Source: Myxococcaceae bacterium
Lineage (GTDB): Bacteria > Myxococcota > Myxococcia > Myxococcales > Myxococcaceae
Length of the DNA: 32,214 bases
Assembly (NCBI GenBank): GCA_017881265.1
Contig: JADGRA010000010.1
Location: forward strand, 1 to 32,214
Direction: 5' to 3'
Shown here: positions 1,753 through 32,214 of the stretch, piece by piece
How the letters are laid out: the number at the start of each line of letters is the position of its first letter
Numbering within the stretch: the first letter of the stretch is position 1
Notes under the pieces: generated by a model
The model's database searches: none
The model's input: the letters and a program-made list of their open reading frames with translations, nothing else
Told to the model about the DNA's origin: nothing
Position numbers and translations under genes: made by a program

Positions 1753-3732
1753 CTGCTGCCCACGACACTTGTCGCTGCCCTCATCCTTGCCGCAAGCCCG
1801 CAGCGGCCCACCGTCGAGTCCGCGCTCGCGGCGCTGCACCGCATCGTCCATTTCGAGCGGGTTGCAATCTCGCCCGATGGGGAACGGGTGGCCTGGGTCG
1901 AGACAGTCGCCACGCCGGACGGCCCGTCGGGCAACCTGCGAACCATTCGCGTGAGCGACCGGTCCGGCTCGCCGGCAGTGCTCCTCACCGCCGCCCGCGA
2001 CGCCTCCCCCCACGAGGAGGACGAGCCTGTTTTCTCGCCCGACGGGGGCAGGGTGGCATTCCTGTCGGATGCCGAGGCCTCCGGTCAGCCGCAGCTGTAC
2101 GTGGCCGACCTCAAGAGCGGGGCCGTCCGCCAACTGACGCACGTCACGGGTTACTTGGAGAACCCGCGTTGGGCCCCCGATGGAAAGCGGCTGGCCGTCC
2201 TGTTCCTCGAGGGAGCTGCGGACGCGCGCGGCCCGCTCGGCCCGAGTGCCCGCGAGACCGGCGTCATCGCCTCCGTCGTCCATGAACAGCGCCTCGCCGT
2301 GGTGGCTGTCGAGGGTGGCGAACTCACGCGCGTTTCCCCGGCCGACCTATTCATCTACGAGTACGCCTGGAGCCCGGATGGGACGCGTTTCGTCGCCACC
2401 GGTGCACACGGAGACGGAGACAACAACTGGTGGACGGCCGACCTCTTCCTCGTGCCGGCTTCGGGGGCCGCAGCGACGCGCCTGTACCACCCGACGCTGC
2501 AGCTGTGCGAGCCGACGTGGAGCCCCGATGGGACCCGGGTGGCCTTCATCGAAGGGCTGATGAGCGACTTCGGCTTCAACGGGGGCGATGTCTTCGTCGT
2601 CCCGGTCGCCGGCGGCCGCGCTCGGAATGTCACCCCCGGGATGCACGCCTCCGCGGCGCAGCTACATTGGTCGGCGACCTCGGGCCTGGTGGCCACGGCG
2701 GCGATGGGCGGGGATTCGGCGTTCCTGCGTGTGGACGCTGACCAGGCGAAGGCCCCGGTGACGCTCTGGCGCGCTGGCGAGACGGTGAGGCGGAGCCGGA
2801 ACATCTCGGCGGCGTTCGCCAGCGACGGGAAGACGACGGCGGTCATCCGCGAGTCGGCGCTGGAACCTCCGGACGTCTTCGCTGGTGCCATAGGGACCTG
2901 GACGCGGCTGTCCAAGGCCAACGCCGGCGCCAGCAGCCCAGCCGCCGAGGTGCAGAGCCTGACCTGGACGAGCGACCGTTGGGAAGTTCAGGGCTGGCTC
3001 CTTCTGCCACCAGCCGAGATGACGGCGCGCAAGCCAGCGATGGTGGTCAACGTGCACGGAGGTCCCGCTGGCGTCGCCACCAATGCCTTCGACACGAAAG
3101 TCCTCCTGCTCGTCAGCCAGGGCTACGCGGTGCTCCTGCCAAACCCCCGCGGCAGCTACGGTCAGGGCGAGGCCTTCACCCGTGCCAACGTGAAGGACTT
3201 CGGGCATGGGGACCTGCGCGACATCCTCGCCGGCGTAGACCGGGTGGTCCGGACCGGTGCAGTCGATGGCACCCGCGTTGGCATCACCGGGCACAGCTAC
3301 GGCGGGTACATGACGATGTTCGCCGTGACCCAAACCAATCGTTTCAAGGCGGCGGTGGCAAGTGCCGGCATCGCCAACTGGCTCAGTTACTACGGCGAGA
3401 ACAAGATTGACCAGTGGATGGTGCCATACTTCGGCGCCACGGTATACGCGGACCCCGCCGTGTACGCGCGGAGCTCTCCCATGACGTTCATCACCCACGT
3501 GAAGACGCCCACGCTGGTGCTGGTCGGGGAACGGGACGCGGAGTGCCCGGCGCCGCAAAGCTACGAGTTCTGGCATGCGCTCAAGACGCTGGGGGTGCCT
3601 ACGGAGTTCGTCGTCTACGCGGACGAGGGGCACCACTTCCTGAACCCGGCAAACGTGCTCGACCACACCCGGCGTGAGGTGGCGTGGCTGGACCAGTACC
3701 TGAACGGAGTTCCTGCCGCGGCGGCCCGCTGA
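1753..3732 (+). CDS. Secreted S9-family prolyl oligopeptidase / acylaminoacyl-peptidase-like hydrolase
   Basis: Serine peptidase of family S9, expected to cleave short peptides in the envelope or outside the cell. The N-terminal half carries WD40/TolB-like beta-propeller blades (repeated SPDG: ISPDGERVAW, FSPDGGRVAF, WAPDGKRLAV, WSPDGTR). The C-terminal half is an alpha/beta hydrolase with Ser about 515 in GHSYGG, Asp about 595 in GERDAE and His about 627 in DEGHHF. The first ATG/GTG/TTG-type start is the GTG at 1888, but that cuts into the first blade. Upstream in frame, to the stop at 1717, the sequence encodes LLPTTLVAALILAASP, a good signal peptide, followed by an amphipathic stretch. A CTG at 1753 sits 8 nt after GAGAGGAG, so I chose it as start (659 aa). 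The start is inferred; the family call is firm. Confidence 0.9.
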   Translation: MLPTTLVAALILAASPQRPTVESALAALHRIVHFERVAISPDGERVAWVETVATPDGPSGNLRTIRVSDRSGSPAVLLTAARDASPHEEDEPVFSPDGGRVAFLSDAEASGQPQLYVADLKSGAVRQLTHVTGYLENPRWAPDGKRLAVLFLEGAADARGPLGPSARETGVIASVVHEQRLAVVAVEGGELTRVSPADLFIYEYAWSPDGTRFVATGAHGDGDNNWWTADLFLVPASGAAATRLYHPTLQLCEPTWSPDGTRVAFIEGLMSDFGFNGGDVFVVPVAGGRARNVTPGMHASAAQLHWSATSGLVATAAMGGDSAFLRVDADQAKAPVTLWRAGETVRRSRNISAAFASDGKTTAVIRESALEPPDVFAGAIGTWTRLSKANAGASSPAAEVQSLTWTSDRWEVQGWLLLPPAEMTARKPAMVVNVHGGPAGVATNAFDTKVLLLVSQGYAVLLPNPRGSYGQGEAFTRANVKDFGHGDLRDILAGVDRVVRTGAVDGTRVGITGHSYGGYMTMFAVTQTNRFKAAVASAGIANWLSYYGENKIDQWMVPYFGATVYADPAVYARSSPMTFITHVKTPTLVLVGERDAECPAPQSYEFWHALKTLGVPTEFVVYADEGHHFLNPANVLDHTRREVAWLDQYLNGVPAAAAR

Positions 3733-8626: not shown

Positions 8627-10069
8627 TTAGGGCGACTGCGTGCGGGGGAGTGGGGCTGCGGACTTCCGACTCCACCAGGCGTAGACCGGGAGGCCCGAGA
8701 CAACGAGCAGCAGACCGACGAGAGACTCCCGCGGCGATTGGGACAGCGTCGTGCAGACCAGCGCGAGGCAGACTGCGACGAAGAGCCCAGGTATCCAGGG
8801 ATAGCCCCAGGTTCGGTACGGACGGGGCGTATGCGGGCGTGTCTTCCGAAGCACGAACACCGCCATCCCACAGCCAGCATGGAAGAGGACGCCTGCGAAG
8901 ACCACGCACGTGTATAGCTGCTCATAGGTTCCCGACAGAGCGAGCACGATGGACCACGCGCCCTGGGCGACCAGGCTCCTCGAGGGCGTATGCGTTCGTG
9001 GGTGAACATAGGCAAGCGAGCGGAAGAAAAGCCCGTCCTCTGCCATGGGGAGATAGATGCGTGAGCAGCACAGGACGTTTGACGCCAGACAGCCGAACGT
9101 TGCCACGAGTACGGAGAGGGCGATTAGGCGGGCGCCGCTCGCGCCAAAGAGCGCGTTCGCTGCAGCCTCGGCGATCCGTGTGGAGTGACCAATCACCGAG
9201 ACAGGAAGGGCGCGGAGGTAGACTACGTTGGTGACGAGGTAGAGCCCCATCACCGCCATGGAACCCCTCACCAAACCGCGGGGCAGGTTCCTCCCCGGCT
9301 CACGCACCTCTCCGGCAGAGAAAGTGAGGACATACCAGCCGTCAAAGGTCCACAGCACCGCGACCATTCCAAGCGCTAGACCAGCGACTAGGCCAGTGGA
9401 GGGGAGCGGAGCGAGAAGGTCGAGTGAGGCTGTCGGCGGAACAGCGAGCCCAACGACGGCGAGACCGACGAGGGCAGCCACCTTGAGCACGGTAATCGCG
9501 TTCTGAACAAAGGCGCCCTCCCGAAGCCCCACGTAATTGACCGCGGTGTGAAATGCGATGGCCAAGGCCCCAGCCAATTGACCGCCACTCACGCTCCACG
9601 TCCACTCGGTACTCCCTACGTGCCAGAGGATGTGGTGCGTGGAGAAGAAGGGAACGAACGCCCCGACGTACTCGCCGAATCCGACGGCAATGGTTGCGAT
9701 GCCACCACTCATGATGACCAAGAAGGAGGTCCAGCCAAAAAGGAAGCCCCAGAAGCGGCCATAGGCCTCCTTGAGAAAATGGTACTGGCCCCCGGCGCGC
9801 GGGAACATGGCGCCGAGTTCCGCGTAGCTGAGCGCCCCTGCCAGCGTCAGCAGCCCACCCGAGCCCCACAAGAGCAGAATGAGTCCGCCTTGCGGGAGCC
9901 GTCGAGCGATGTCTCCCGTGGTGAGGAAGATACCGCTCCCAAGCATCGCCCCGGCGGTGATGAGAGCTCCATCCCAGGCTCCGAGGCGCCGCTCCAGACC
10001 CGCTTGTCCGGACGTCGCGCCGTCCTTTCCGGGTCTCACATCGTCCATCCTGTCACAACCAGCTTGCAC
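8627..10069 (-). CDS. APC-superfamily amino-acid permease
   Basis: A 480-aa inner-membrane transporter with about twelve hydrophobic segments. The first helix has the APC substrate motif GAMLGSGIFLTTG; YAELGAMFPRAGGQYHFLKEAYG is the conserved loop of the LAT/amino-acid-transporter branch; FDGWYVLTFSAGEVREPGRNLPRG is the helix-6/7 signature. Start GTG 10069 has GAGG about 9 nt upstream; ATG 10048 is an alternative. The Rieske oxygenase gene starts 35 bp away on the other strand. The pair may handle one amine or amino-acid substrate, an inference from position only. Confidence 0.9.
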   Translation of the reverse strand: MQAGCDRMDDVRPGKDGATSGQAGLERRLGAWDGALITAGAMLGSGIFLTTGDIARRLPQGGLILLLWGSGGLLTLAGALSYAELGAMFPRAGGQYHFLKEAYGRFWGFLFGWTSFLVIMSGGIATIAVGFGEYVGAFVPFFSTHHILWHVGSTEWTWSVSGGQLAGALAIAFHTAVNYVGLREGAFVQNAITVLKVAALVGLAVVGLAVPPTASLDLLAPLPSTGLVAGLALGMVAVLWTFDGWYVLTFSAGEVREPGRNLPRGLVRGSMAVMGLYLVTNVVYLRALPVSVIGHSTRIAEAAANALFGASGARLIALSVLVATFGCLASNVLCCSRIYLPMAEDGLFFRSLAYVHPRTHTPSRSLVAQGAWSIVLALSGTYEQLYTCVVFAGVLFHAGCGMAVFVLRKTRPHTPRPYRTWGYPWIPGLFVAVCLALVCTTLSQSPRESLVGLLLVVSGLPVYAWWSRKSAAPLPRTQSP

Positions 10070-21762: not shown

Positions 21763-24700
21763 ATGGTACGTGCAATTCCGCGTATTGGTCTGTTCGCGCT
21801 TGTCGCTGCCTTGTCGTTTGGGACTTATTGGTTTCAACGGTCTGAAATTGGGGTGCCGGCCTCTGAGGTCTCCCGCCCGCCGGCCGTCTCCGCTCTCCCC
21901 GAGGAAGTCTCGTCGAATTCGCGTGTCGAGCGAGCGACTCCCTTTCCCCTCACCGAGGCGGACGCTGCGCTGACGCGGGGTTTCCCGCAGCAGTCGGCGG
22001 AAGTCACAGCCGGGACTGGCTTCGTGCGCTCGACGTATGGCTTCCGCGCGCGGGGTCCGGAGGTGAACGCAGAAGCCGCGACCGATGCCGCGGAAGCAGC
22101 GCTCTCGACCCGCGCGAGGCTGCAGCTCGAGTTGCCCGCGCGGGGGGAAGGGGTTGCAACGTTGTCCCTTCCGACGGGGTTGGCGGTGGAGGTCCGTGAG
22201 CGGGGGGCCGAAGGCCCGGGGCGCGTGGTCCAGGGGGCGGTGGCCTACGGCCGTGCGGGTGGCACGTCCTACTGGCGCACGACAGACACGGGCTACGAGG
22301 AGTGGCTCCTCCTGGCCGATGCACGGGAAGGCCCCGTGGCACAGTGGGAGGTGCAGGGCGGCCAGTTGGAGCAGGACGGGGACGACGTCGTTGTGACGGA
22401 CGCTGCGGGGCAGGCGCGACTTCGAGTCGCGGCACCGAGAGCCTACGGTTTGGGCGGCCAGGAAGCCCGGGCGTGGCTGCGTGCCAGGGGCCAGGTGCTC
22501 GCCCTGTACACCTCGGCGCGCGGGCGCGCGCTCGTGGACCCGATCTGGACGACGGTGGGGAGGATGGCGACAGCGCGCGTCGGGCACACCGCGACGCTGT
22601 TGTTGTCCGGCAAGGTGCTCGTTGCGGGAAATGGCACCGCAGAGATCTACGACCCGGCGACACAAACCTGGAGTCCCACTGGCAACATGACGACGGTGCG
22701 CAGCGGGCACACCGCGACGCTGTTGTCGTCTGGGAAGGTGCTCGTCGCCGGCGGCCGTGGCGCTGGCGGCGGGCCCGCCTGGAACAATCCTCTCGGCTTC
22801 CTCGCCACCGCGGAGCTGTATGACCCGGAAGTGGGCACGTGGAGTGCCACTGGCTCCATGACTACGGTGCATCTCAACCACACTGCGACGCTGCTTCCGT
22901 CCGGGAAGGTGCTCGTCGCCGGGGGCTACAACCGGAACTACGTCAGAGGCTATGACTTCACCTATTGGACCACTGCCGTCGCGGAGCTGTATGACCCTGA
23001 AGGCGGCACGTGGAGTGCAACCGGCTCCATGGCGACGGCGCGCGGATCTCATACGGCGACGCTGCTGGCCTCCGGGAGAGTCCTCGTCGCCGCCGGCTAC
23101 AACCGTTTCCCGTATGGGAGTCCCCCCGATCTCGACAGCGCGGAGCTGTATGACCCTGCTGTTGAGATGTGGAATGGCACTGACCCCATGATGTCGGTGC
23201 GTGCCGGCTCACCGGCGAGTTCGCGCGCCTACCTGAATGCGACGCTGCTTCAATCGGGGAAGGTCCTCTTCACCGGGGGCGACGCCGACAGTCCGCAGTT
23301 GTATGACCCGCAAGCTGGGAGCTGGAGCACCACTGGCTCCATGTTCGCGGAGCACTACCACTCCACCGCGACGTTGCTTCCGTCCGGGCACGTCCTCGTC
23401 GCTAGCGGGGAGTTTGACAGCGCGGAGCTGTATGACGCGACTGCGGGGACCTGGAGTGCCACCGGCTCCTTGGCTACTGCGCGCTTCGACCACACCGCGA
23501 CGCTCCTTGTGTCCGGGCAGGTGCTGGTCACTGGCGGCATCGGCAGCACTGGCGTACTCGCCAGCTCCGAGCTGTATGGCTCGACCACGTCAGCGCCAGT
23601 GATTTCGCCGTCTATGGTGACACTGGCACCACAACAGAGCCAGGCCTTCACCGCGTCGGGTGGTAGCGGGATTGGATACGTCTGGGCCCTCGCTACCAAC
23701 GCATCGGGCGGCACCATGAGCTCAGCGGGTGTCTACACCGCGGGTGCCATGGGTGATGTGACCGACGTGATCAGTGTGACGGACTCGCTGGGCGCTCATG
23801 CAAAGGCGACGGTGATGGTGACCAGCGCTTTGGCGATCGATCCGACGAGCGTCATGCTGGACCCGCTGACGAGCCAGACATTCACCGCTTCCGGTGGTAG
23901 CGGGACTGGATTTGTCTGGGGCTTCATCACCAACGCCTCGGGCGGCACGCTGAGCGCAGACGGGGTCTACACCGCGGGTGCCACGAATCACGTGACCGAC
24001 GTGGTCAGCGTGACGGACTCGCTGGGGAACTCCTCCACCGCCACCGTGACAGTGGGAACGCCCGTCGCTCCACTGGCGATTTCACCGTCCGATGTGGCGT
24101 TGAATGTCGGGGCGACGCAGGTCCTCCGCGCGGTGGGTGGCAGTGGTCTTGCCAATCTCTGGGCGGTGGAGACCAACCGCTCAGGGGGTCACTTCACAAC
24201 TGTCGGCTCCCAGTGCGAGAGGACCTTCGCTCACAGGAATTCATCTTGCTACACCGCAGGGCCGATCGCGGGCGTGACGGACGTGATCCGAGTCACGGAT
24301 TCTCTTGGCGATATGGCGTGGGCGATGGTGAGGGTGACGTTCGTCGCCCCCCCGCTAGTCGTCTCGCCGCAGGACGTGACGCTGGCTCCGAAGGCGACCC
24401 AGACGTTCACTGCCTCGGCCGGCAGTCTGACTGGATACATGTGGGCATTCGTCGGCAACGCCTCCGGGGGCACCCTGAGCACAGCCGGTGCCTACGTCGC
24501 AGGCTCTACGGGTGGTGTTACCGATGTCGTCGGTGTGACGGATTCCCTGGGCGCCCACGCAACAGCCACGGTGAACGTCACCAACGCGCTCGGCATCTCT
24601 CCCTCCGGCATTACTCTGGCCCCGGAGGCGCGTCAGAACTTCACCGCGTCCGGGGGCAGTGGGTCTGGGTACACGTGGGCATTCGTCGGCAACGCCTCCG

Positions 24701-24936
24701 GGGGTGCGCTGAACGCAGCCGGTGCCTACGTCGCAGGCTCCACGGGTGGCGTCACCGATGTCGTCGGTGTGACGGACTCCCTGGGCGCTCACGCAACGGC
24801 AACGGTGACGGTGACGGTGACGGTGACGCCCAGTGGCGGCTGCGGCGCGACGGGTGGGAGCGCATTCCCTCTGCTGGCGTTCACACTCTTACCGCTGCTC
24901 GCACCGCGCCGCAGGAAGCTGTTCGCTGCCAACTGA
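21763..24936 (+). CDS. Large surface protein: kelch-type propeller plus five Ig-like repeats, MYXO-CTERM-like anchor
   Basis: A 1057-aa exported protein. The N-terminus MVRAIPRIGLFALVAALSFG is a signal/anchor. Residues about 50-265 form a globular domain seen in myxobacterial surface proteins. About seven kelch/Kelch_4-type repeats follow, with the core HTATLLxSGKVLVAGG and YDPxxGTWSATGSM. Then come five Ig-like domains of about 78-93 aa (ISPSxVTLAPxxxQxFTASGGSGxGYxWAxxxNASGG ... VTDVVxVTDSLGAHATATV). The end GGCGATGG, a Leu-rich helix and APRRRK is a MYXO-CTERM-like sorting signal for surface anchoring. ATG 21763 gives a clean signal peptide, preferred over the TTG at 21748. A role in adhesion or matrix binding is likely for the architecture but not shown. 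Confidence 0.88.
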   Translation: MVRAIPRIGLFALVAALSFGTYWFQRSEIGVPASEVSRPPAVSALPEEVSSNSRVERATPFPLTEADAALTRGFPQQSAEVTAGTGFVRSTYGFRARGPEVNAEAATDAAEAALSTRARLQLELPARGEGVATLSLPTGLAVEVRERGAEGPGRVVQGAVAYGRAGGTSYWRTTDTGYEEWLLLADAREGPVAQWEVQGGQLEQDGDDVVVTDAAGQARLRVAAPRAYGLGGQEARAWLRARGQVLALYTSARGRALVDPIWTTVGRMATARVGHTATLLLSGKVLVAGNGTAEIYDPATQTWSPTGNMTTVRSGHTATLLSSGKVLVAGGRGAGGGPAWNNPLGFLATAELYDPEVGTWSATGSMTTVHLNHTATLLPSGKVLVAGGYNRNYVRGYDFTYWTTAVAELYDPEGGTWSATGSMATARGSHTATLLASGRVLVAAGYNRFPYGSPPDLDSAELYDPAVEMWNGTDPMMSVRAGSPASSRAYLNATLLQSGKVLFTGGDADSPQLYDPQAGSWSTTGSMFAEHYHSTATLLPSGHVLVASGEFDSAELYDATAGTWSATGSLATARFDHTATLLVSGQVLVTGGIGSTGVLASSELYGSTTSAPVISPSMVTLAPQQSQAFTASGGSGIGYVWALATNASGGTMSSAGVYTAGAMGDVTDVISVTDSLGAHAKATVMVTSALAIDPTSVMLDPLTSQTFTASGGSGTGFVWGFITNASGGTLSADGVYTAGATNHVTDVVSVTDSLGNSSTATVTVGTPVAPLAISPSDVALNVGATQVLRAVGGSGLANLWAVETNRSGGHFTTVGSQCERTFAHRNSSCYTAGPIAGVTDVIRVTDSLGDMAWAMVRVTFVAPPLVVSPQDVTLAPKATQTFTASAGSLTGYMWAFVGNASGGTLSTAGAYVAGSTGGVTDVVGVTDSLGAHATATVNVTNALGISPSGITLAPEARQNFTASGGSGSGYTWAFVGNASGGALNAAGAYVAGSTGGVTDVVGVTDSLGAHATATVTVTVTVTPSGGCGATGGSAFPLLAFTLLPLLAPRRRKLFAAN
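23593..24830 (+). repeat. Five tandem Ig-like-domain coding repeats
   Basis: Units start near 23593, 23827, 24067, 24347 and 24586. Four spacings run about 234, 240, 280 and 239 bp. Units 4 and 5 are nearly identical over the AGAYVAGSTGGVTDVVGVTD region, pointing to a recent duplication. Unit 3 is the most diverged and carries an insertion with two extra cysteines (SQCERTFAHRNSSCY). Confidence 0.85.
24805..24828 (+). repeat. GTGACG hexanucleotide repeat, four copies
   Basis: Four perfect GTGACG units in frame encode alternating Val-Thr at the junction between the last Ig-like domain and the sorting signal. Gain or loss of a unit would keep the frame and change linker length. Confidence 0.8.
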
Positions 24937-24945
24937 ACCTGCGCT

Positions 24946-25308
24946 TTGGAAGTGACCCAGAAGCGGTTCAAGGAAGGCGAGGGAACCCACCCCGTCTCAG
25001 AGGTTCCCAATGGTCCCAGCCGGTCGGAATTTCGCGTGGTTGGCGAAGCCCCGGGCGATCCTGACTTCCCAACGGTCCCAGCTTTCCCAGCCATTCCACC
25101 CTCAAATGTGGACAAACCATGTGGACAGCAGGGGCGGCCGGTCGATGAGCCCGGCTTATTGGCGCTCCTGACCGTCAGCGTCGCCGAGTTGCTCCGGTGC
25201 TCCAAGGCCACACTCTACGGATTGATCGATCGGAAAGAGCTGCCCTCGCTGCGTGTGTCGAACGCTATCCGGGTGCGGCGAGAGGACGTGGAAGCACTCT
25301 CGCGCTAG
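24946..25308 (+). CDS. Excisionase/MerR-type helix-turn-helix protein
   Basis: The last 50 codons encode a complete HTH_17/excisionase-type DNA-binding domain: LLTVSVAELLRCSKATLYGLIDRKELPSLRVSNAIRVRREDVEAL. Such proteins act as recombination directionality factors or small regulators. The ORF can open at TTG 24946 (120 aa), but the first 65 codons are Pro-rich, overlap direct repeats and look non-coding; a start at GTG 25108 or TTG 25159 (about 50 aa) is more likely. No good ribosome site was found. In many genomes an integrase follows such a gene; here no integrase is found downstream. Confidence 0.6.
   Translation: MEVTQKRFKEGEGTHPVSEVPNGPSRSEFRVVGEAPGDPDFPTVPAFPAIPPSNVDKPCGQQGRPVDEPGLLALLTVSVAELLRCSKATLYGLIDRKELPSLRVSNAIRVRREDVEALSR
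25004..25082. repeat. Direct repeat TTCCCAAYGGTCCCAGC (two copies)
   Basis: 17-bp copies at 25004-25020 and 25066-25082 differ at one base and are 62 bp apart; a partial TTTCCCAGCC follows directly. They lie just upstream of the HTH domain, where binding sites for the protein or a partner recombinase would be expected. Confidence 0.6.
25106..25127. repeat. Direct repeat ATGTGGACA (two copies)
   Basis: Copies at 25106-25114 and 25119-25127, 13 bp apart, between the longer repeat pair and the HTH domain. Spacing near one helical turn would suit a protein-binding site. Confidence 0.5.
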
Positions 25309-25523
25309 CAACGACGTCGTAGCCTGTGCCTCGCCAATCCACGGTCAGTCGTGTCCACCACAACGGAGCGGAACGCCGGGACGAAGGCTGCGAGGAAGCG
25401 GAGCATTTGGGCGACGAGAACGCAGGCCTCGTCGGATTCGCCAATGGTTCCGGGACGAACCGAGTTCTCGAGCCACAGGTGTTCCTGCGCAAGACGTTCT
25501 AGAGGGTGCGACCGCTGCTCGGG

Positions 25524-26138
25524 TCAGCCGATGCCGCTATCGGTTCCGCCGTCGGGCGGCACGCAAGATCCGTCCTGGTCGGACTCGGAACGGACGTGGA
25601 TCACTGGAGAGAGGATCCACTCAGCCGACGGTCCGCCCGTCGGGTGGTACTCGATGGCGTTGGGACCGTCGAAGTCGAGAACTAGCACGTGCGTCTTGCA
25701 GGGTTGAACCTGGAATGGCCCGTTCAGTTTGAGGCCAGAGGTGTCTCCGCTCGGAGTCTTAAGGTCGGCATGTGAACCGTCGGGGAGGACGACGTACTGA
25801 GGTCCATTCGGGTCGAGCACGAAGCGAACCTGGGTGATGGCCCCGGAAGGAATCTGTACCGGGCCGAGCTGGCGCGTGTCGGTCGGGAGCTGGAGCAGGT
25901 CCACCGTGAGTGGTCCCGTGAAGATTTGGATCCAGCCGCCTCCCTCCGGATTCGCAGTCACCTCGTCGATTGTGACGATGATCCCCTGCAGCGAGTTCAC
26001 TGGCGCAGCTGCCGTGTTCACCGGAGCAGTCAGCTTCACCGCGAGCATCCCCGGCCCGGTGGACGAGCCACACGCCATCCCTCCGCCGAGGGCAAGTGCT
26101 GCAACCAAGCCGGGGATACGACGTCGTTCGGTTTCCAT
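25524..26138 (-). CDS. DUF4382-family putative lipoprotein
   Basis: A 204-aa product. The N-terminus METERRRIPGLVAALALGGGMACGSS is a probable lipoprotein signal (Cys near residue 23). The rest follows the DUF4382 pattern: MLAVKLTAPVNTAAAPVNSLQGIIVTIDEV, then GGGWIQIFTGPLTVDLLQL, PSGAITQVRFVLD, TSGLKLNGPFQV, LVLDFDGPNAI and WILSPVIHV, an all-beta fold of unknown function. The family's usual TDAP loop is replaced by TAPVNTAAAPV. ATG 26138 has a GGGGGGAGGGGG ribosome site. A longer in-frame start at 26303 adds basic non-homologous residues. Confidence 0.8.
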   Translation of the reverse strand: METERRRIPGLVAALALGGGMACGSSTGPGMLAVKLTAPVNTAAAPVNSLQGIIVTIDEVTANPEGGGWIQIFTGPLTVDLLQLPTDTRQLGPVQIPSGAITQVRFVLDPNGPQYVVLPDGSHADLKTPSGDTSGLKLNGPFQVQPCKTHVLVLDFDGPNAIEYHPTGGPSAEWILSPVIHVRSESDQDGSCVPPDGGTDSGIG

Positions 26139-27000
26139 CCTTGCGACCCCCTCCCCCCGGAGTGATCTCCCGGAGCGGAGAGGGCCGGCACGATAGGCAC
26201 CGGCGTATGTCGGGGGTAGGGGTGGGTCTGAGATAGGCCAAACGGAAGGCGTAATCACCCGCTTTGAATCCGTACGTCGTGCGCGGGACAAAGCTCTTTC
26301 CAACTTGGATGGTTCCGATGCGCGCGATGTAGCTCGACACAGGCCCAGTTCCGGCTACCGCGTGCTTCTCGGCGTCGCCAGTTTTCGGCGCCCAGCCTCC
26401 GAACTCAGATTGGTAGCTCACAGAAATGATGCTTCGTGCACTGTTGCGGGACGGCATCATCGCCGAAGCTGCTGAGCGCTATGGGCACAAGCGCTCGGCC
26501 GCCCCACGCGTGAACGCGCGGTCCGCGGCTTCGCTATTCGCCTTGTGCTTGGCGGCCTCCTTTTGGTCGCCGGCAAGGACGTGAGTGGAAGGCCGCAGCT
26601 GACAGAGGCGGAGCCAAGCGGCGCCTGAATGAGACGCAATGCTCGCGCGAGGGTGTCGTCCATCTTCGGTGCCAACTGTGACGCGTCGGTTTCGGGTCCT
26701 TCAGGCCCAGCATTCACGTCGATGGGGTGAAGATGGTTTCCCTACAGTCCTGAAAATGACGTTGCCCACTCGCGGCCTGGCGTCAGTGAAGTGATGCAGT
26801 GCCCCACGCGTGTTGGACCGACGGTCTTGACGTCGCGTTCCACCCGATGCCTGGCTCCCCGACTCGCCCTCGGCAAAGAGTAAACGGGCCGCGTCATCGA
26901 GAGCGCGCGGCGCCGGTCGCTGGCCCACGGTCGACGGCTTCCGCTCCGGGCGTGGGTGCCACTGCTCACCCGGAGCGAGTGATCAGATCGGGACGGAGAC
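26139..27000. other. Long region without a supported gene
   Basis: About 860 bp. A minus-strand frame at about 26200-26460 encodes a low-bias stretch (SYIARIGTIQVGKSFVPRTTYGF) that could be a degraded gene, and a 52-codon plus ORF at 26426-26584 begins MMLRALLRDGIIAEAAERYG. Neither is recognised. The right end carries a hairpin near 26943. Confidence 0.4.
26943..26976 (-). terminator. Hairpin 3' of the haloperoxidase-like gene
   Basis: GCTCCGGG / CCCGGAGC, 8-bp stem with an 18-nt loop, 25-58 nt beyond the minus-strand stop at 27001. No U-run, so weak support. Confidence 0.3.
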
Positions 27001-28362
27001 CTAGTCGTCGTCCCGATCGTCACCGTCGCGGTCGTGGTCGGGGTCATCGCCTCGGTCATGGGTCGGACGGAAGTGGTGGCGCAGCATGTGGTGCACCACC
27101 TTCTTGCCGAGCTTGGCCCCTTGCTCGGTCGAGTTCCTGTAGTGCATGCCGCCGTAGACGCGAGCGCGTTCCACCTCGGCCAGCGCGTCGCTGAAGCGCT
27201 CGTAGCTGCGGACCGGCTGCAGCAGGCCTGCCACCGTGCTGTTGATCGTGAATGCGATGTCGTCGGTGTTGAAGAATGCCTCCAGCGTGTGGACGGTGGC
27301 GCTGCTGACGCATCCGTGGGCTGCCGGGTACTCGGGGTGGTTCGGAGTCACCACGTTGCTCTCCCATGTCGGATCGGCAGTCAGTTTGGGGTTGGCGCCG
27401 CCAGCGCGGATCGCGGTGACCGGACGCCAGAATACATAGTGGAACTTCGAGTCCCAGCAGCCGATCAGCGCGTCCGAGACGGCCATGTAGAGCATCGCGA
27501 AGAAGCGAGCCTCGTGCTCGATCGAGAGCTGCTGCGTCGTCGCAATGCCGCGCCACGCGCGGTTCCACTGGAGCATCGGCTGGTCGGACCAGAACACGCC
27601 GATGTCGGTCTGCTCCTGCGTGCGCGTGCTACCGACCTTGGCGCCGAGCGTCTTGGTCTCATTGTAGTCCCGGATCCAGGTCTTGCTGTCCAAGCTCGGC
27701 GGAGGGTGCGCGCGGAACTGCGATGGGGAGGTCATCGTCCACGGAGTGATGAACCGTACCCACGGAGTTAGAGCCGGCAAGAAGGCTGGAGGAGTCGGGA
27801 CCCACACACCGTCGCCTCCCGAGGTGGTGAACGTGCCGCCCGCGTTGCGGCCATCGTTCGCGCGTAACGCCACGATCGCCGCGGCCGTTTGTTGACCGAC
27901 CGAGACGCCGTTGGTCTTCGCCTCTCCATCTGGCACGTACGAAAGCGACGTCGCGTACGCTGCGTCCAGTCCGGCGGCGTTCGCGGGGTAGAGCGCGAGG
28001 AGTACGTCGTGCGCCGCGGCGGCCGTGGCCGCGTAGTCCGACGCCGGCGTGATTACGTTCGGGTGAGAGCCGTAGTTGGTGTACGGGTTACGGTGGATCG
28101 CGTTGACGGCGTCGTAGATCGCCGTATGGACGATCGCGCCGTCCAGAAACGCGAGGGGGGGTGGTTTGGCCGCACCGCCGGGGCCGACGATCATCTGCGC
28201 TGCCGTCGCGTTCCAGGCAAGAACGGGGTCGGGTGCCCCCGTCAGCGCTGCCGCGCTGACGGCGTCGGGCGGCACCGCCTGGGCTGCTTCGCTCGGCCCC
28301 TGATTGACTCCACATCCACCGAGAATGGTGACCAGAACACTGACTACGCCAAGAAGCTTCAT
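27001..28362 (-). CDS. Vanadium-dependent haloperoxidase / PAP2-family lipoprotein
   Basis: A 453-aa exported protein. The signal MKLLGVVSVLVTILGGC has a Cys at the lipobox. The C-terminal half carries the vanadate/phosphate pocket pattern of secreted vPAP2 proteins: KFHYVFWRPVTAIR, PNHPEYPAAHGCVSSATVHTL and RVYGGMHYRNSTEQG. Fungal and bacterial chloroperoxidases use the equivalent Lys, Arg, Ser-Gly-His and His; here the second motif reads AAHGC instead of SGH, as in the bacterial secreted branch, so haloperoxidase activity is uncertain and a phosphatase role is possible. The last 19 residues are Asp/Arg/His-rich (HDRGDDPDHDRDGDDRDDD). The ATG has GGAGGG upstream and overlaps the end of the out-of-frame sigma ORF (ATGA). 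Confidence 0.85.
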   Translation of the reverse strand: MKLLGVVSVLVTILGGCGVNQGPSEAAQAVPPDAVSAAALTGAPDPVLAWNATAAQMIVGPGGAAKPPPLAFLDGAIVHTAIYDAVNAIHRNPYTNYGSHPNVITPASDYAATAAAAHDVLLALYPANAAGLDAAYATSLSYVPDGEAKTNGVSVGQQTAAAIVALRANDGRNAGGTFTTSGGDGVWVPTPPAFLPALTPWVRFITPWTMTSPSQFRAHPPPSLDSKTWIRDYNETKTLGAKVGSTRTQEQTDIGVFWSDQPMLQWNRAWRGIATTQQLSIEHEARFFAMLYMAVSDALIGCWDSKFHYVFWRPVTAIRAGGANPKLTADPTWESNVVTPNHPEYPAAHGCVSSATVHTLEAFFNTDDIAFTINSTVAGLLQPVRSYERFSDALAEVERARVYGGMHYRNSTEQGAKLGKKVVHHMLRHHFRPTHDRGDDPDHDRDGDDRDDD

Positions 28363-28542
28363 ATATAGGTCCCTCCGCTGATGGGTGGCAGAGACCGTTC
28401 AGGGCGAATTTGACCTTTTCGCAGGACGGTCGAGCCTGCGCTGCCGAGTCCGACCTCCGGGACCCTCGGACGCGCCCTCAGGATCCGTTCTCCGAGGAAT
28501 GGGTGCAGTCTCGCACGGAGCGTGAAGCAGGACAGGGAGTCG

Positions 28543-29072
28543 CTATGGCCTTTCGAGGAGTCCTGCGTCCTCGGCCAGCTTCCGGAGCCGCTCCTGCACG
28601 CGCGGGAACCGCTTGGCGACCGTCTGGGAATCGAGGTGCGCCTCCGGGGTGGACATGACCGATGCCACCTCGGACCATGACAGGCCCGGTCAATCCTCAG
28701 GACCAGGAGGGACTGCTCGGCGGGTGCCAGCTGCTCGCGCAGCCGCGCGACCGCGTCTTTCGCCTCGGACCTCAGGTGCAGCGCGGTGGTCGACCGAACG
28801 GCCGCGGCGAGGCGGGCCATCTCCTCGGTCACGAGTGGACGCCCGTGGAGGCGGTACGTGTCCCGCTCGTTCCGGAGCCAGGCGTGCCACGCCAGCTTGT
28901 AGACCCAGGTGCGTACCGACGCGTCGCGGCGGAACCCGGGCAATCCCCGCCATAGGTCTTCGCAGAATTGTGAGAACACGTCATCGGCCCGGTCGTCGTC
29001 GCGAGCCAGCGCCGCGAGATAGCCGAGGATGGCGGCCCGGAACGTGTTCGTGCTCCGGGACGGCCGGGTCAA
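28543..29072 (-). pseudogene. ECF-type sigma factor, 5'-truncated and frameshifted
   Basis: Region 2 is clear: ALARDDDRADDVFSQFCEDLWRGLPGFRRDASVRTWVYKLAWHAW. The frame then leads into LLVLRIDRACHGPRW, which is not region 4. In the neighbouring frame the missing region 4 follows at once: LSWSEVASVMSTPEAH and QTVAKRFPRVQERLRKLAEDAGLLERP, ending with TAG at 28543-28545. One base is missing in the GGG at 28685-28687; four Gs would restore IDRGLSWSE and a protein of about 176 aa. The upstream end is also abnormal: there is no ATG, and sigma-like sequence stops near 29040, where kinase sequence begins on the other strand. Region 4 contacts the -35 box, so the uncorrected product should not function. 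Confidence 0.8.
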
Positions 29073-29103
29073 GGTTCTGGATTTCGGTCTCGCCGGGCTC
29101 GAC
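29038..29103 (+). pseudogene. Serine/threonine protein kinase fragment (DFG segment)
   Basis: The plus-strand frame encodes NVFVLRDGRVKVLDFGLAGLD, matching kinase subdomains VIb end to VII (DLKPxNVFV ... KVLDFGLA, with the Mg-binding DFG Asp). The HRDLKP part before it and the activation loop and APE after it are absent. Only about 22 codons are preserved, joined abruptly to sigma-factor sequence on its left. Confidence 0.7.
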
Positions 29104-29138
29104 AGGACACGAAGTAGCGGGACCCCGCGGGACCCGCA

Positions 29139-29252
29139 GCGGGGGAGCTGAGGCTGCTCGCCCCCGCGGCCGAGACGCTCCTGTCGGTCCGGGAGGTCGC
29201 TTCCAGGCTGAGCGTCAGCGCCGCGACTGTCTACGGCCTATGTGACCGCGAG
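29139..29252 (+). pseudogene. Excisionase-type HTH fragment
   Basis: The frame reads LLAPAAETLLSVREVASRLSVSAATVYGLCDRE, the first two thirds of an HTH_17/excisionase domain, very similar to the modules ending at 25308 and 31365 (TVxELLxxSxATxYGL). The winged C-terminal part (LxHVRVxNxIRI) is missing; the DNA passes directly into alpha/beta-hydrolase sequence at about 29239. Confidence 0.65.
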
Positions 29253-30898
29253 CTTGGGCTGGGGTGCCGACGTCCTGCCCGGAAACGGGCGTTTCATCCT
29301 GCGAGCGCCAGCTCCCACCAACGCTGACGGGAGTCCGATTACCCAGCAGATTACCATCGAGTTGAGCGACGAGTTCAGCTTCAACGAAGGTGGCGGGGAC
29401 ACCTGCGTGCCGCTGAGCGGCTCCGCGACCATCGCGGGCTACCCGGCAGTCTTGGCCGAGGAAGCGAGCGGTGAGCTGTTTGCCCGCCCCAGCGATTCGC
29501 CGAGACCCTCCGCACCGCCGATTCCCGTGGGCACGCTCGTCCCCCATTCGCAGTGGCACTTCAGCGATGCCAATACGCTGTGCGTCGCCGGAGGCTTTCA
29601 AACCGGGACGGTGTACCAGCTGAACTACGTCGCGCAGGACACGCGCATCATGGGTCTTGGGTACACGGCGCAGCGCGATTTCGCTTCGTTCCTACGAAAC
29701 CGCAAGACAGATAGCGGCGGCGTGGCGAACCCGCTGGCGGGAGGTGGCGGTGTCGACACTTCCCTCGTCTACGGGAGCATCCCAGTCCGGCGTGTACCTG
29801 AGAGACTTCGTCTACCAGGGCTTCAATGAGGACACGAAGGGCCGCCGCGTATTCGACGGCGTCCATGCCCACATCTCCGGAGCCGTGAAGCTTGGGCTCA
29901 ACTACCGCTTCGGGCAGGTCCACCCCTGGTCGACGGAGCACCGCGACCGTTTCATTCCGCAGGTGACGTTTCCCTTCAACTTCGGCGTCCGCGTGAATCC
30001 GCTGGTCGCCCTCGGCTACCAGGACGGCCCGCTGCGGGACGGCATTCTCAAGCGGCCAGACACCGACCCTCTCTTCGTCCAGACCGACAGCTCGAACGAG
30101 TATTGGTGGGGAGAGACGTCGCTGGTCGACACCGACGGTTTCGGCCATGAAGTACAGCTGCCGTGGAACGCGCGGCACTACGTCATTGTGGGGACCCAGC
30201 ATTTCAGTGCAACCGGCTCCGTCCCAACCTTGGGTCTCTGCCAGCAGCTCAACAACCCCGTCCCGCAGGGGCCAGCGTTGCGAGCCGTGTTTGTCGCACT
30301 CGAGGAGTGGGTAGCGAATGGCAGGGAGCCTCCGCCGAGCCGGCGTCCCACGGTAAGCGCTGGGCTGCTCGTCCCTCCTCAAGACCGCGCGGTCGTCGGT
30401 GTCCCGGAGATTCCCGGCTACACCTACAACGGCCTCTTCAATGCGCTCGCCGAACTCGACTTCGGGCCAAAGGTCTCCCACAACCGGGGAATCATCACGA
30501 ACTGGGGCCATCCGCCCGCGCTCGCCACCTACCAGGTGCTCGTCCCCAGGGAGAATGCCGTGGGCATCGACCGCGGCGGTCTCGAGCTTCCTGTCGTCGG
30601 TGTTCCGACTGTGACGCTCACTGGCTGGAACTACCGGCGTGCACCCTACGCGGACGGCGAGCTCTGTGAGCTCAACGGTAGTTATCTGCCGTTGCCGGTG
30701 ACTAAGGCCGAGGCCGAGGCGGCTGGCGACCCACGGCCTTCGCTGCAAGAGCTCTACGGCACCCACGAGGGCTATGTGAAGGCCGTGAAGAGGTTCGTCC
30801 GGAAAAGCGTGAGGGAGCACTACCTTCTTCCCGCTGACGCAGCAGCTGCAGTGCAGGACGCAGAAGCGAGCGACGTTCTGGTAGGTGTCGGCCCCTGA
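29239..30898 (+). pseudogene. Alpha/beta hydrolase domain protein, N-terminally truncated and frameshifted
   Basis: The first frame (from 29239) gives YVTASLGWGADVLPGNGRF, NADGSPITQQ and MGLGYTAQRDFASFLRN up to VDTSLVYG. The second frame (to 30898) continues ASQSGVYLRDFVYQGFNEDTKGRRVFDGVHAHISG, DPLFVQTDSSNEYWW, VGTQHFSATG and so on. Together they match a family of large secreted alpha/beta hydrolases in which YGxSQSG holds the nucleophile Ser. A single extra base at about 29773-29777 separates the frames exactly at this motif. About 110 N-terminal residues of the family are absent and no start codon or signal peptide precedes 29239. The second frame remains open to a normal-looking end. Confidence 0.75.
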
Positions 30899-30954
30899 CA
30901 TAGTGGAGTCTGGAGTGACGTCAAGCAGAGTGCGAACGTCTCTCCTGAGATGGT

Positions 30955-30984
30955 GCAGGCACGGACAGAAATAGCCGTGCCTGC
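30955..30984. terminator. Strong hairpin after the hydrolase remnant
   Basis: Perfect 10-bp stem GCAGGCACGG / CCGTGCCTGC with a 10-nt AT-rich loop, 57 bp past the hydrolase stop, followed by GCTTTGG. Likely terminator of the former hydrolase gene. Confidence 0.55.
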
Positions 30985-30999
30985 GCTTTGGCATTGAGA

Positions 31000-31047
31000 A
31001 AGGTTGACGCGATTCCGGGCTCGAACCAGTGGCCTTCGGATCCGGAG
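31000..31047 (-). other. tRNA-Arg(CCG)-like 3' half, possible attachment-site remnant
   Basis: Read on the minus strand: CTCCGGA (like an Arg-CCG anticodon loop), TCCGAAGGCC, then ACTGGTTCGAGCCCGG, which resembles a T-arm with the TTCGA loop (four of five stem pairs). The 5' half that should precede it does not fold: the segment before the anticodon-like loop cannot pair with TCCGA. It is therefore not a working tRNA. Tyrosine recombinases often insert in tRNA 3' halves and leave such a copy. Confidence 0.35.
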
Positions 31048-31187
31048 AGCGGATGGGTACTCGAGCAGGGGTCGCCACAGGTTGCTAAACGCGCGCATGT
31101 CCTTCTTTCTGGCGGTGGCCCACCCGGCGGTCCGCAGCACGACTTGGCACCGTTTGACACAAAAAGAGCGGATGGGAAGCGGATGGG
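31048..31187. repeat. Three copies of AGCGGATGGG
   Basis: Copies at 31048-31057, 31167-31176 and 31178-31187. The last two are adjacent and run into the proposed start of the third HTH module; the first abuts the tRNA-like segment. Confidence 0.6.
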
Positions 31188-31365
31188 ATTTACCGTCCGC
31201 GAGCTTGCCGAGTAGCTCCACCTCTCGACGGCGACAGTGTACGGCTGGGTGAAGGCCGGGAAGCTCGCCCACTTGCGGCTCGGGGGAAACGTCATCCGGA
31301 TTCCTCTCCCAGCAGTCGAGCGCTTCATTGCGGCTTCGCGCGGCGGGCATATTCAGTCCCGATGA
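31183..31365 (+). pseudogene. Excisionase-type HTH gene with in-frame TAG
   Basis: From ATG 31183 the frame reads MGFTVRELAE, TAG (31213-31215), then LHLSTATVYGWVKAGKLAHL, RLGGNVIRIPLPAVERFIAASRGG and TGA at 31363. The full HTH_17/excisionase domain is present in one frame on both sides of the stop, so a single base change in a Glu, Gln, Lys or similar codon between two HTH helices explains it. The complete protein would be about 60 aa. No suppressor context or integrase is visible. Confidence 0.75.
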
Positions 31366-31491
31366 CCGAGTGGCCACGCCCCTTAGCCAGGGGAGGGCGC
31401 CGTAGCTGAGGAGGTGAATGGGCGTATGGCAGGTCGGTTCTTCGCCACGACCGCACTTGCGCATCTCGAGGTCACGACCCACCTTTAGGTC

Positions 31492-31695
31492 ATGACTCGG
31501 ACCTTCCTGGCATTGTTATGTTGCTTAGTATGTCTCGGGTGCGGTGGCGGACAATCCGAGCCAAACGGAACCTGTACCTACCAAGGTCAGACCTTCACGC
31601 AATTCGTCACGTGCCCGGGCAGCACCGTTTGCTGCCCCACCTATGACCATTGCGCAGTCATCGTGGGCGGCGGCTACTCGTGCGCATCCAACTGA
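31492..31695 (+). CDS. Small cysteine-rich putative lipoprotein
   Basis: A 67-aa product. The signal MTRTFLALLCCLVCLGC has a lipobox CLGC. The mature part of about 50 residues holds six cysteines (CTYQG, VTCPGSTVCCP, HCAV, YSCASN) in a compact pattern that could form three disulfides. The ATG at 31492 has only a weak upstream site (TTTAGGTC). No family recognised. Small Cys-rich lipoproteins of this kind are common in myxobacteria; a role cannot be inferred. Confidence 0.65.
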   Translation: MTRTFLALLCCLVCLGCGGGQSEPNGTCTYQGQTFTQFVTCPGSTVCCPTYDHCAVIVGGGYSCASN

Positions 31696-32093
31696 GCACA
31701 GAGTTCCAAAACTGACTTCAGCGACGGCCGACGGTGGGCCGTGCTGGCTACAAATCCCATCTCGCATGAGAATGTAGCTTGGCAACGTGACGCGGAGTGC
31801 CTCAAGCGGCTCGGCGGTCATCATAGTGAAGTCCGCCGAGCACGGGGATTGCGGCAATGCGGCCCACGAACTCCGCGTGACGTGGAATGGGCTGTTGGTG
31901 CCCGAGAGCTTGGTGCGGCCGTCGTGCTGGCTCCGTTGTTCATCCGAGCGTCATTCACGGCTCACGCGGCGCGGCGCTAGTCATGATGCAGCCCATTCTG
32001 TTCCGTCAGCTACGGAGTTTTGCGTCTTGATATCGAGTACCAGCAGGTCGACCAGGTCGCGGCGAGCGGGATCCGTGACTACCCTACGCTCAC
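31696..32093. other. Intergenic region before the last gene
   Basis: About 400 bp. No ORF here has family features. It should contain the promoter of the gene at 32094; nothing definite was seen. Confidence 0.35.
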
Positions 32094-32214
32094 ATGAAGG
32101 CTCAACTCGCCGTCTCCGCGCTGCTTCTCTCCACCGTCGTCTGGAGCCAGACGCCGCCGCCGAAAATCACGCCCTCGGCAGAAGGGCCGGGCACCGAGGC
32201 GGGGAAAGATAGCA
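32094..32214 (+). CDS. Exported protein, N-terminal part only
   Basis: Runs off the right edge. The 40 visible codons start MKAQLAVSALLLSTVVWSQ, a typical cleavable signal peptide, followed by a Pro/Gly/Glu-rich stretch (TPPPKITPSAEGPGTEAGKD). The family cannot be told. The ribosome site before the ATG is poor, so the start rests on the signal peptide. Confidence 0.6.
   Translation, partial: MKAQLAVSALLLSTVVWSQTPPPKITPSAEGPGTEAGKDS

What the first reader, a model, noticed from the sequence alone, without database searches (positions are those of the whole stretch)
28543..30898. Mosaic of four gene fragments joined end to end
Within about 700 bp the sequence passes from a 5'-truncated sigma factor (minus) to a 22-codon kinase DFG segment (plus) at about 29040, to a partial excisionase-type HTH at about 29139, to an alpha/beta hydrolase lacking its first third at about 29239. 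The homologies end abruptly, and at the last junction the two overlap by roughly a dozen bases (TATGTGACCGCG), which would fit joining at microhomology. Repeated insertion and deletion at one spot is the simplest reading.
Basis: partly seen in the sequence, partly recalled or inferred. Interest (0 to 1): 0.6.

Follow-up and report, generated by a model that had tools for sequence, protein, structure and literature searches.

The report
Scrap heap at a mobile-element site
Four broken gene pieces really do sit end to end here, and one of them is the worn-out end of a small mobile DNA element of a kind that inserts at tRNA genes in myxobacteria; this is ordinary genome decay, though it shows which mobile element was involved.

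Summary
Homology to intact relatives switches abruptly: sigma factor (28543-29032, minus), a 22-codon kinase DFG scrap (29038-29103, plus), an HTH_17 piece (about 29100-29256) and an alpha/beta hydrolase lacking its N-terminal third (29257-30898). The sigma and hydrolase pieces each carry a 1-bp frameshift, yet their substitutions still look constrained, so the breakage is recent.

The HTH piece is identifiable. It follows a paired repeat, GCGGGACCC-C-GCGGGACCC, found exactly only once more in this 4.4-Mb genome: between an integrase 3' end and tRNA-Arg(CCG) on another contig. A second HTH_17 gene (31189, with a stop) follows a tRNA-Arg(CCG) 3'-half fragment (31008-31047). Across Myxococcales, such HTH_17 genes lie 1-12 kb upstream of tyrosine integrases on the same strand (40 pairs against 3 in opposite orientation), mostly with a tRNA T-arm about 170-250 bp upstream (23 of 29 loci). 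So the scrap is the left end of a decayed tRNA-targeted integrative element.

Repeated insertion and deletion is supported. The claimed 12-base microhomology is not: the HTH/hydrolase junction allows 2 bp at most. Where the sigma and kinase scraps came from stays unexplained; a chimeric assembly cannot be excluded.

The parts
28543..29032 (-). 5'-truncated ECF-type sigma factor pseudogene, 1-bp deletion at about 28688
   Evidence: 77% DNA identity to G006:C176 and homology to many other sigma genes of the order; homology stops at 29029-29039
29033..29041 (.). junction J1, sigma to kinase
   Evidence: sigma homology ends at about 29032, kinase homology begins at about 29038-29041
29038..29103 (+). 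protein kinase scrap (catalytic loop to DFG, 22 codons)
   Evidence: 12 other loci of the same genome match, best 70% over 20 aa; PF07714 E 0.016
29117..29135 (+). paired direct repeat GCGGGACCC x2, read as arm-type sites of an integrative element
   Evidence: exact pair occurs only here and at C70:19671-19690 in the whole genome; control pattern 0
29139..29256 (+). 5' part of HTH_17 (excisionase-type) gene, truncated
   Evidence: HTH_17 positions 1-24 of 51; 75% DNA identity to C12:9715-9857 over 29112-29256
29257..30898 (+). alpha/beta hydrolase (PF20091) lacking its N-terminal third, 1-bp insertion at about 29773
   Evidence: 75% identity to the intact G066:C52 gene; PF20091 E 3e-37
31008..31047 (-). 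3'-half fragment of tRNA-Arg(CCG), read as attachment-site remnant
   Evidence: 34 of 40 bases identical to the genome's own tRNA-Arg(CCG) on C70; similar fragments on C33
31046..31187 (+). three direct repeats containing GCGGATGGG (31046-31057, 31165-31176, 31176-31187), read as arm-type sites
   Evidence: the window's 4 matches to GCGGATGGG were not reached in any of 100 shuffles
31189..31341 (+). HTH_17 gene with in-frame TAG, left end of another decayed element
   Evidence: HTH_17 43-44 bits with 1 TAG
25004..25302 (+). third HTH_17 gene with direct repeats upstream (TTCCCAAYGGTCCCAGC x2, ATGTGGACA x2); possible third element end, no tRNA fragment seen

Best explanation
The stretch is a recent scrap heap where tRNA-targeted tyrosine-recombinase integrative elements have accreted and then decayed. 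Best supported: the HTH piece with its paired repeat is the left end (arm-type sites plus the start of an excisionase-type HTH gene) of an element of the same family as the one whose integrase end lies at tRNA-Arg(CCG) on contig C70; another element end, with a tRNA-Arg(CCG) 3' fragment, lies 1.9 kb to the right. Inferred: the missing tRNA core, integrase and 3' half of the HTH gene were lost by illegitimate deletions. Those deletions, or insertion of stray fragments, joined the element end to a 5'-truncated sigma gene, a kinase scrap and a 5'-truncated hydrolase with little or no microhomology at the one junction where it could be measured. None of the pieces is likely to work as a gene now.
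For: Sharp homology ends with intact relatives on both sides. The paired repeat GCGGGACCC occurs exactly only twice in 4.4 Mb, here and next to the C70 integrase and tRNA-Arg(CCG), with 0 in the control pattern. tRNA-Arg(CCG) 3'-half fragments lie at 31008-31047 and on C33. Other HTH_17 copies of this genome lie next to tRNA-Asp or its fragment, on C39 and C4. In the order, HTH_17 and integrase pair as element ends: 40 same-strand pairs with the HTH 1-12 kb upstream and 8 with it downstream, against 3 in opposite orientation. A perfect tRNA T-arm lies 173-253 bp upstream of the HTH in 23 of 29 loci, against 1 of 29 in the downstream control. Frameshifts occur in both truncated genes while many long ORFs elsewhere in the window are uninterrupted.
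Against: No integrase was found in the window, and no tRNA fragment survives beside the 29.1-kb piece. The sigma, kinase and hydrolase pieces are not tied to the element by anything but adjacency. Both frameshifts are at G runs, so sequencing error is possible. The genome is a draft in 81 contigs and an assembly chimera at a junction cannot be excluded without reads. Constraint on the hydrolase is not relaxed: window-branch changes by codon position 37/46/124 against 15/19/54 on the intact branches.
Confidence: 0.72

Rival explanations
1. Assembly chimera: contig ends from different places were wrongly joined, so the mosaic does not exist in the cell.
For: Draft genome in 81 contigs. The best DNA match for the sigma piece, G006:C176, itself ends at the same base (29032), which is unexplained.
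Against: Three separate junctions within 230 bp would all have to be errors. The shared sequence with C12 runs unbroken from the arm repeats into the HTH gene. Decayed HTH copies elsewhere in the genome (C12, C42) have similar truncations or frameshifts.
Confidence: 0.12
2. Plain gene decay without mobile elements: four unrelated genes eroded by deletions until only scraps remained.
For: Truncations and frameshifts alone would be explained; the genome is smaller than most of its family.
Against: The paired repeat is shared with the C70 integrase end, a tRNA-Arg fragment lies nearby, and HTH and integrase are linked across the order. A 66-bp kinase scrap inside the array is hard to get by deletion alone.
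Confidence: 0.13
3. Joining at microhomology of about a dozen bases, as the first reader proposed for the HTH/hydrolase junction.
For: The bases TATGTGACCGCG can be read in both frames.
Against: DNA alignments give those bases to the HTH parent only; the overlap between parents is TG, 2 bp.
Confidence: 0.03

Closest known systems
tRNA-targeted genomic islands with tyrosine integrases (Islander type, PMC4383910)
   Same: tRNA gene fragment at the element end, tyrosine integrase at the tRNA, tandem arrays known
   Different: here only a decayed end is left; no integrase in the window; the 29.1-kb piece has no tRNA fragment
Myxococcus phage Mx8 (PMC6070905; NC_003085)
   Same: myxobacterial integrase whose reading frame runs through the tRNA-derived attachment core; the C70 integrase frame does likewise
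   Different: no HTH_17 was found in the Mx8 integrase frame; the elements here have an HTH_17 gene beyond the core
excisionase-family HTH (TIGR01764 / PF12728)
   Same: weak match of the truncated piece (E 0.0017 and 0.00035), strong match of the other two copies in the window
   Different: function as an excisionase is not shown; the piece lacks the second half of the domain

Membership tests
tRNA-targeted tyrosine-recombinase integrative element | tyrosine integrase gene | tested here: not met
   none found in the window; the one with the same arm repeats is on contig C70
tRNA-targeted tyrosine-recombinase integrative element | tRNA fragment at the end | tested here: inconclusive
   present at 31008-31047 for the 31.2-kb HTH; absent beside the 29.1-kb piece
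tRNA-targeted tyrosine-recombinase integrative element | arm-type direct repeats shared between both element ends | tested here: met
   GCGGGACCC pair here and on C70 only; that the repeats bind the integrase is inferred
tRNA-targeted tyrosine-recombinase integrative element | empty site in a sister strain | tested here: inconclusive
   no close relative with this locus among 145 genomes of the order
pseudogene | truncation or frameshift against intact homologues | tested here: met
   sigma and hydrolase both
pseudogene | relaxed constraint | tested here: not met
   codon-position pattern same as in intact genes, so decay is recent or not yet visible
Mx8-type integrase with attP inside the gene | integrase frame continues through the tRNA core | tested here: met
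   for the C70 integrase of this genome, not for anything in the window

The most novel reading that the evidence does not exclude
In a group of Myxococcales integrative elements the integrase frame runs through the tRNA-derived attachment core and on into an HTH_17 excisionase-type domain, so that integration splits one protein into a catalytic part and an orphan HTH at the far end; the HTH scraps of this window would be such orphans. Two apparently full-length fused frames were seen in one genome (G077:C52, 571 aa; G077:C6). Among the places where an HTH lies just downstream of an integrase, some share a frame and others do not, so a fusion is not the rule.
Probability: 0.15. Interest if true: 0.6.

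Novelty: new member of a known kind. Interest (0 to 1): 0.3.

Why it matters
It turns an odd mosaic into a readable trace. Small HTH scraps in myxobacterial genomes can be recognised as the far ends of decayed tRNA-targeted elements, which helps to find old insertion sites and to avoid annotating scraps as genes. The mosaic itself is ordinary genome decay.

Tried and rejected
Microhomology of 12 bases at the HTH/hydrolase junction: rejected, 2 bp at most. A tRNA fragment by Rfam in 24500-32214: nothing at E up to 5; direct comparison with the genome's own tRNA found it. A recent kinase donor in the same genome: best only 70% over 20 aa. Phage relatives of the piece: none useful. Integrase-HTH fusion as a general rule: rejected, several adjacent cases are in different frames. 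The Mx8 IntP paper PMC178153 is not held.

Full report
The window is contig C79 of a 4.4-Mb genome in 81 contigs. The region of the finding was compared with 60 relatives and then with 145 genomes of the same order. Homology changes abruptly three times in about 230 bp. The sigma factor piece matches G006 at 77% from 28555 to 29032; more distant homologues also stop matching at 29029-29039, although those genes go on for about 30 more N-terminal residues. The kinase piece is a 22-codon stretch from the catalytic loop to DFG that matches 12 other loci in the same genome. The HTH piece matches two tandem copies on contig C12. The hydrolase piece matches an intact gene of G066 from 29257 to its stop codon.

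The truncated genes look recently broken. The sigma piece has one single-base deletion and the hydrolase one single-base insertion, both at runs of G, so sequencing error is possible, although many long reading frames elsewhere in the window are uninterrupted. Substitutions against intact relatives are concentrated at third codon positions (81/90/250 for the hydrolase, 20/16/74 for sigma), and on the window's own branch of the hydrolase the pattern (37/46/124) is the same as on the branches of the intact genes (15/19/54). The window's branch is long, so this says only that most of the divergence came before the breakage.

The HTH piece can be placed. Just before it lies the repeat pair GCGGGACCC-C-GCGGGACCC (29117-29135). 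The pattern with a spacer of 0-4 bases occurs exactly twice in the genome; the other place, C70:19671-19690, is between the 3' end of a tyrosine integrase and a complete tRNA-Arg(CCG). The two C12 copies have variants of the pair with mismatches. The C70 integrase frame reads on through the repeats and the tRNA, as in phage Mx8 (PMC6070905). Near the contig end C70 carries what reads like the start of an IS256-type transposase; this was judged by eye. Farther right in the window, 31008-31047 is a 3' half of tRNA-Arg(CCG) on the minus strand (34 of 40 bases), followed by three repeats containing GCGGATGGG and an HTH_17 gene with an in-frame TAG. C33 has two further fragments of the same tRNA. 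HTH_17 copies on C39 and C4 lie beside tRNA-Asp or its fragment.

The same linkage holds across the order. Of 29 HTH_17 loci, 23 have a perfect tRNA T-arm 173-253 bp upstream (22 on the opposite strand, one on the same strand), against one in the downstream control. Pairing the HTH hits with the integrase hits on shared contigs within 16 kb gave 40 pairs on the same strand with the HTH 1-12 kb upstream of the integrase, 8 on the same strand with the HTH downstream, and 3 in opposite orientation. So the HTH gene marks one end of small integrative elements and the integrase the other.

The best reading is therefore an accretion and decay site. Element ends were left behind, their integrases and cores were lost, and illegitimate joins brought in or left a sigma gene, a kinase scrap and a hydrolase without their 5' parts. 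The order of events and the origin of the sigma and kinase pieces are inference. The closest sigma match, G006:C176, ends at the very base where the window's homology ends; a search of G006 with the whole locus found no further match, so there is no evidence of a shared junction, but the coincidence is unexplained.

A side observation: where the HTH lies just downstream of an integrase, the frame sometimes runs through without a stop, clearly so in G077:C52 (Phage_integrase and HTH_17 in one 571-aa frame) and, by the search table alone, in G077:C6. By the match positions, the integrase and HTH matches share a frame in L132, L121 and L122, and do not in L123, L276, L289 and L100. A general fusion is not supported.

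Noticed in passing
G077:C52:6936-8648 (L132 6936-8648): One uninterrupted frame of 571 aa holds a tyrosine integrase, a backward-read tRNA-Asp and an HTH_17 domain.
   Followed up: partly
L050 (G000:C70:18291-20414), integrase, repeats and tRNA-Arg(CCG): Integrase end at tRNA-Arg(CCG) whose frame reads through the tRNA; its 5' part appears cut by an IS256-like transposase start near the contig end (judged by eye).
   Followed up: partly
L127 (C33) 637-679 and 3559-3586: Two more tRNA-Arg(CCG) 3' fragments about 3 kb apart, suggesting tandem element ends.
   Followed up: no
L022 (C12) 9715-10014: Two truncated HTH_17 copies in tandem, 163 bp apart, at the contig end.
   Followed up: partly
L075 (G006:C176) position 1: Closest sigma homologue's contig ends at the same base as the window's sigma homology.
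   Followed up: partly
window 27001-28362: Long minus-strand reading frame with weak matches to vanadium chloroperoxidase/PAP2-type families (E 0.005-0.06).
   Followed up: no
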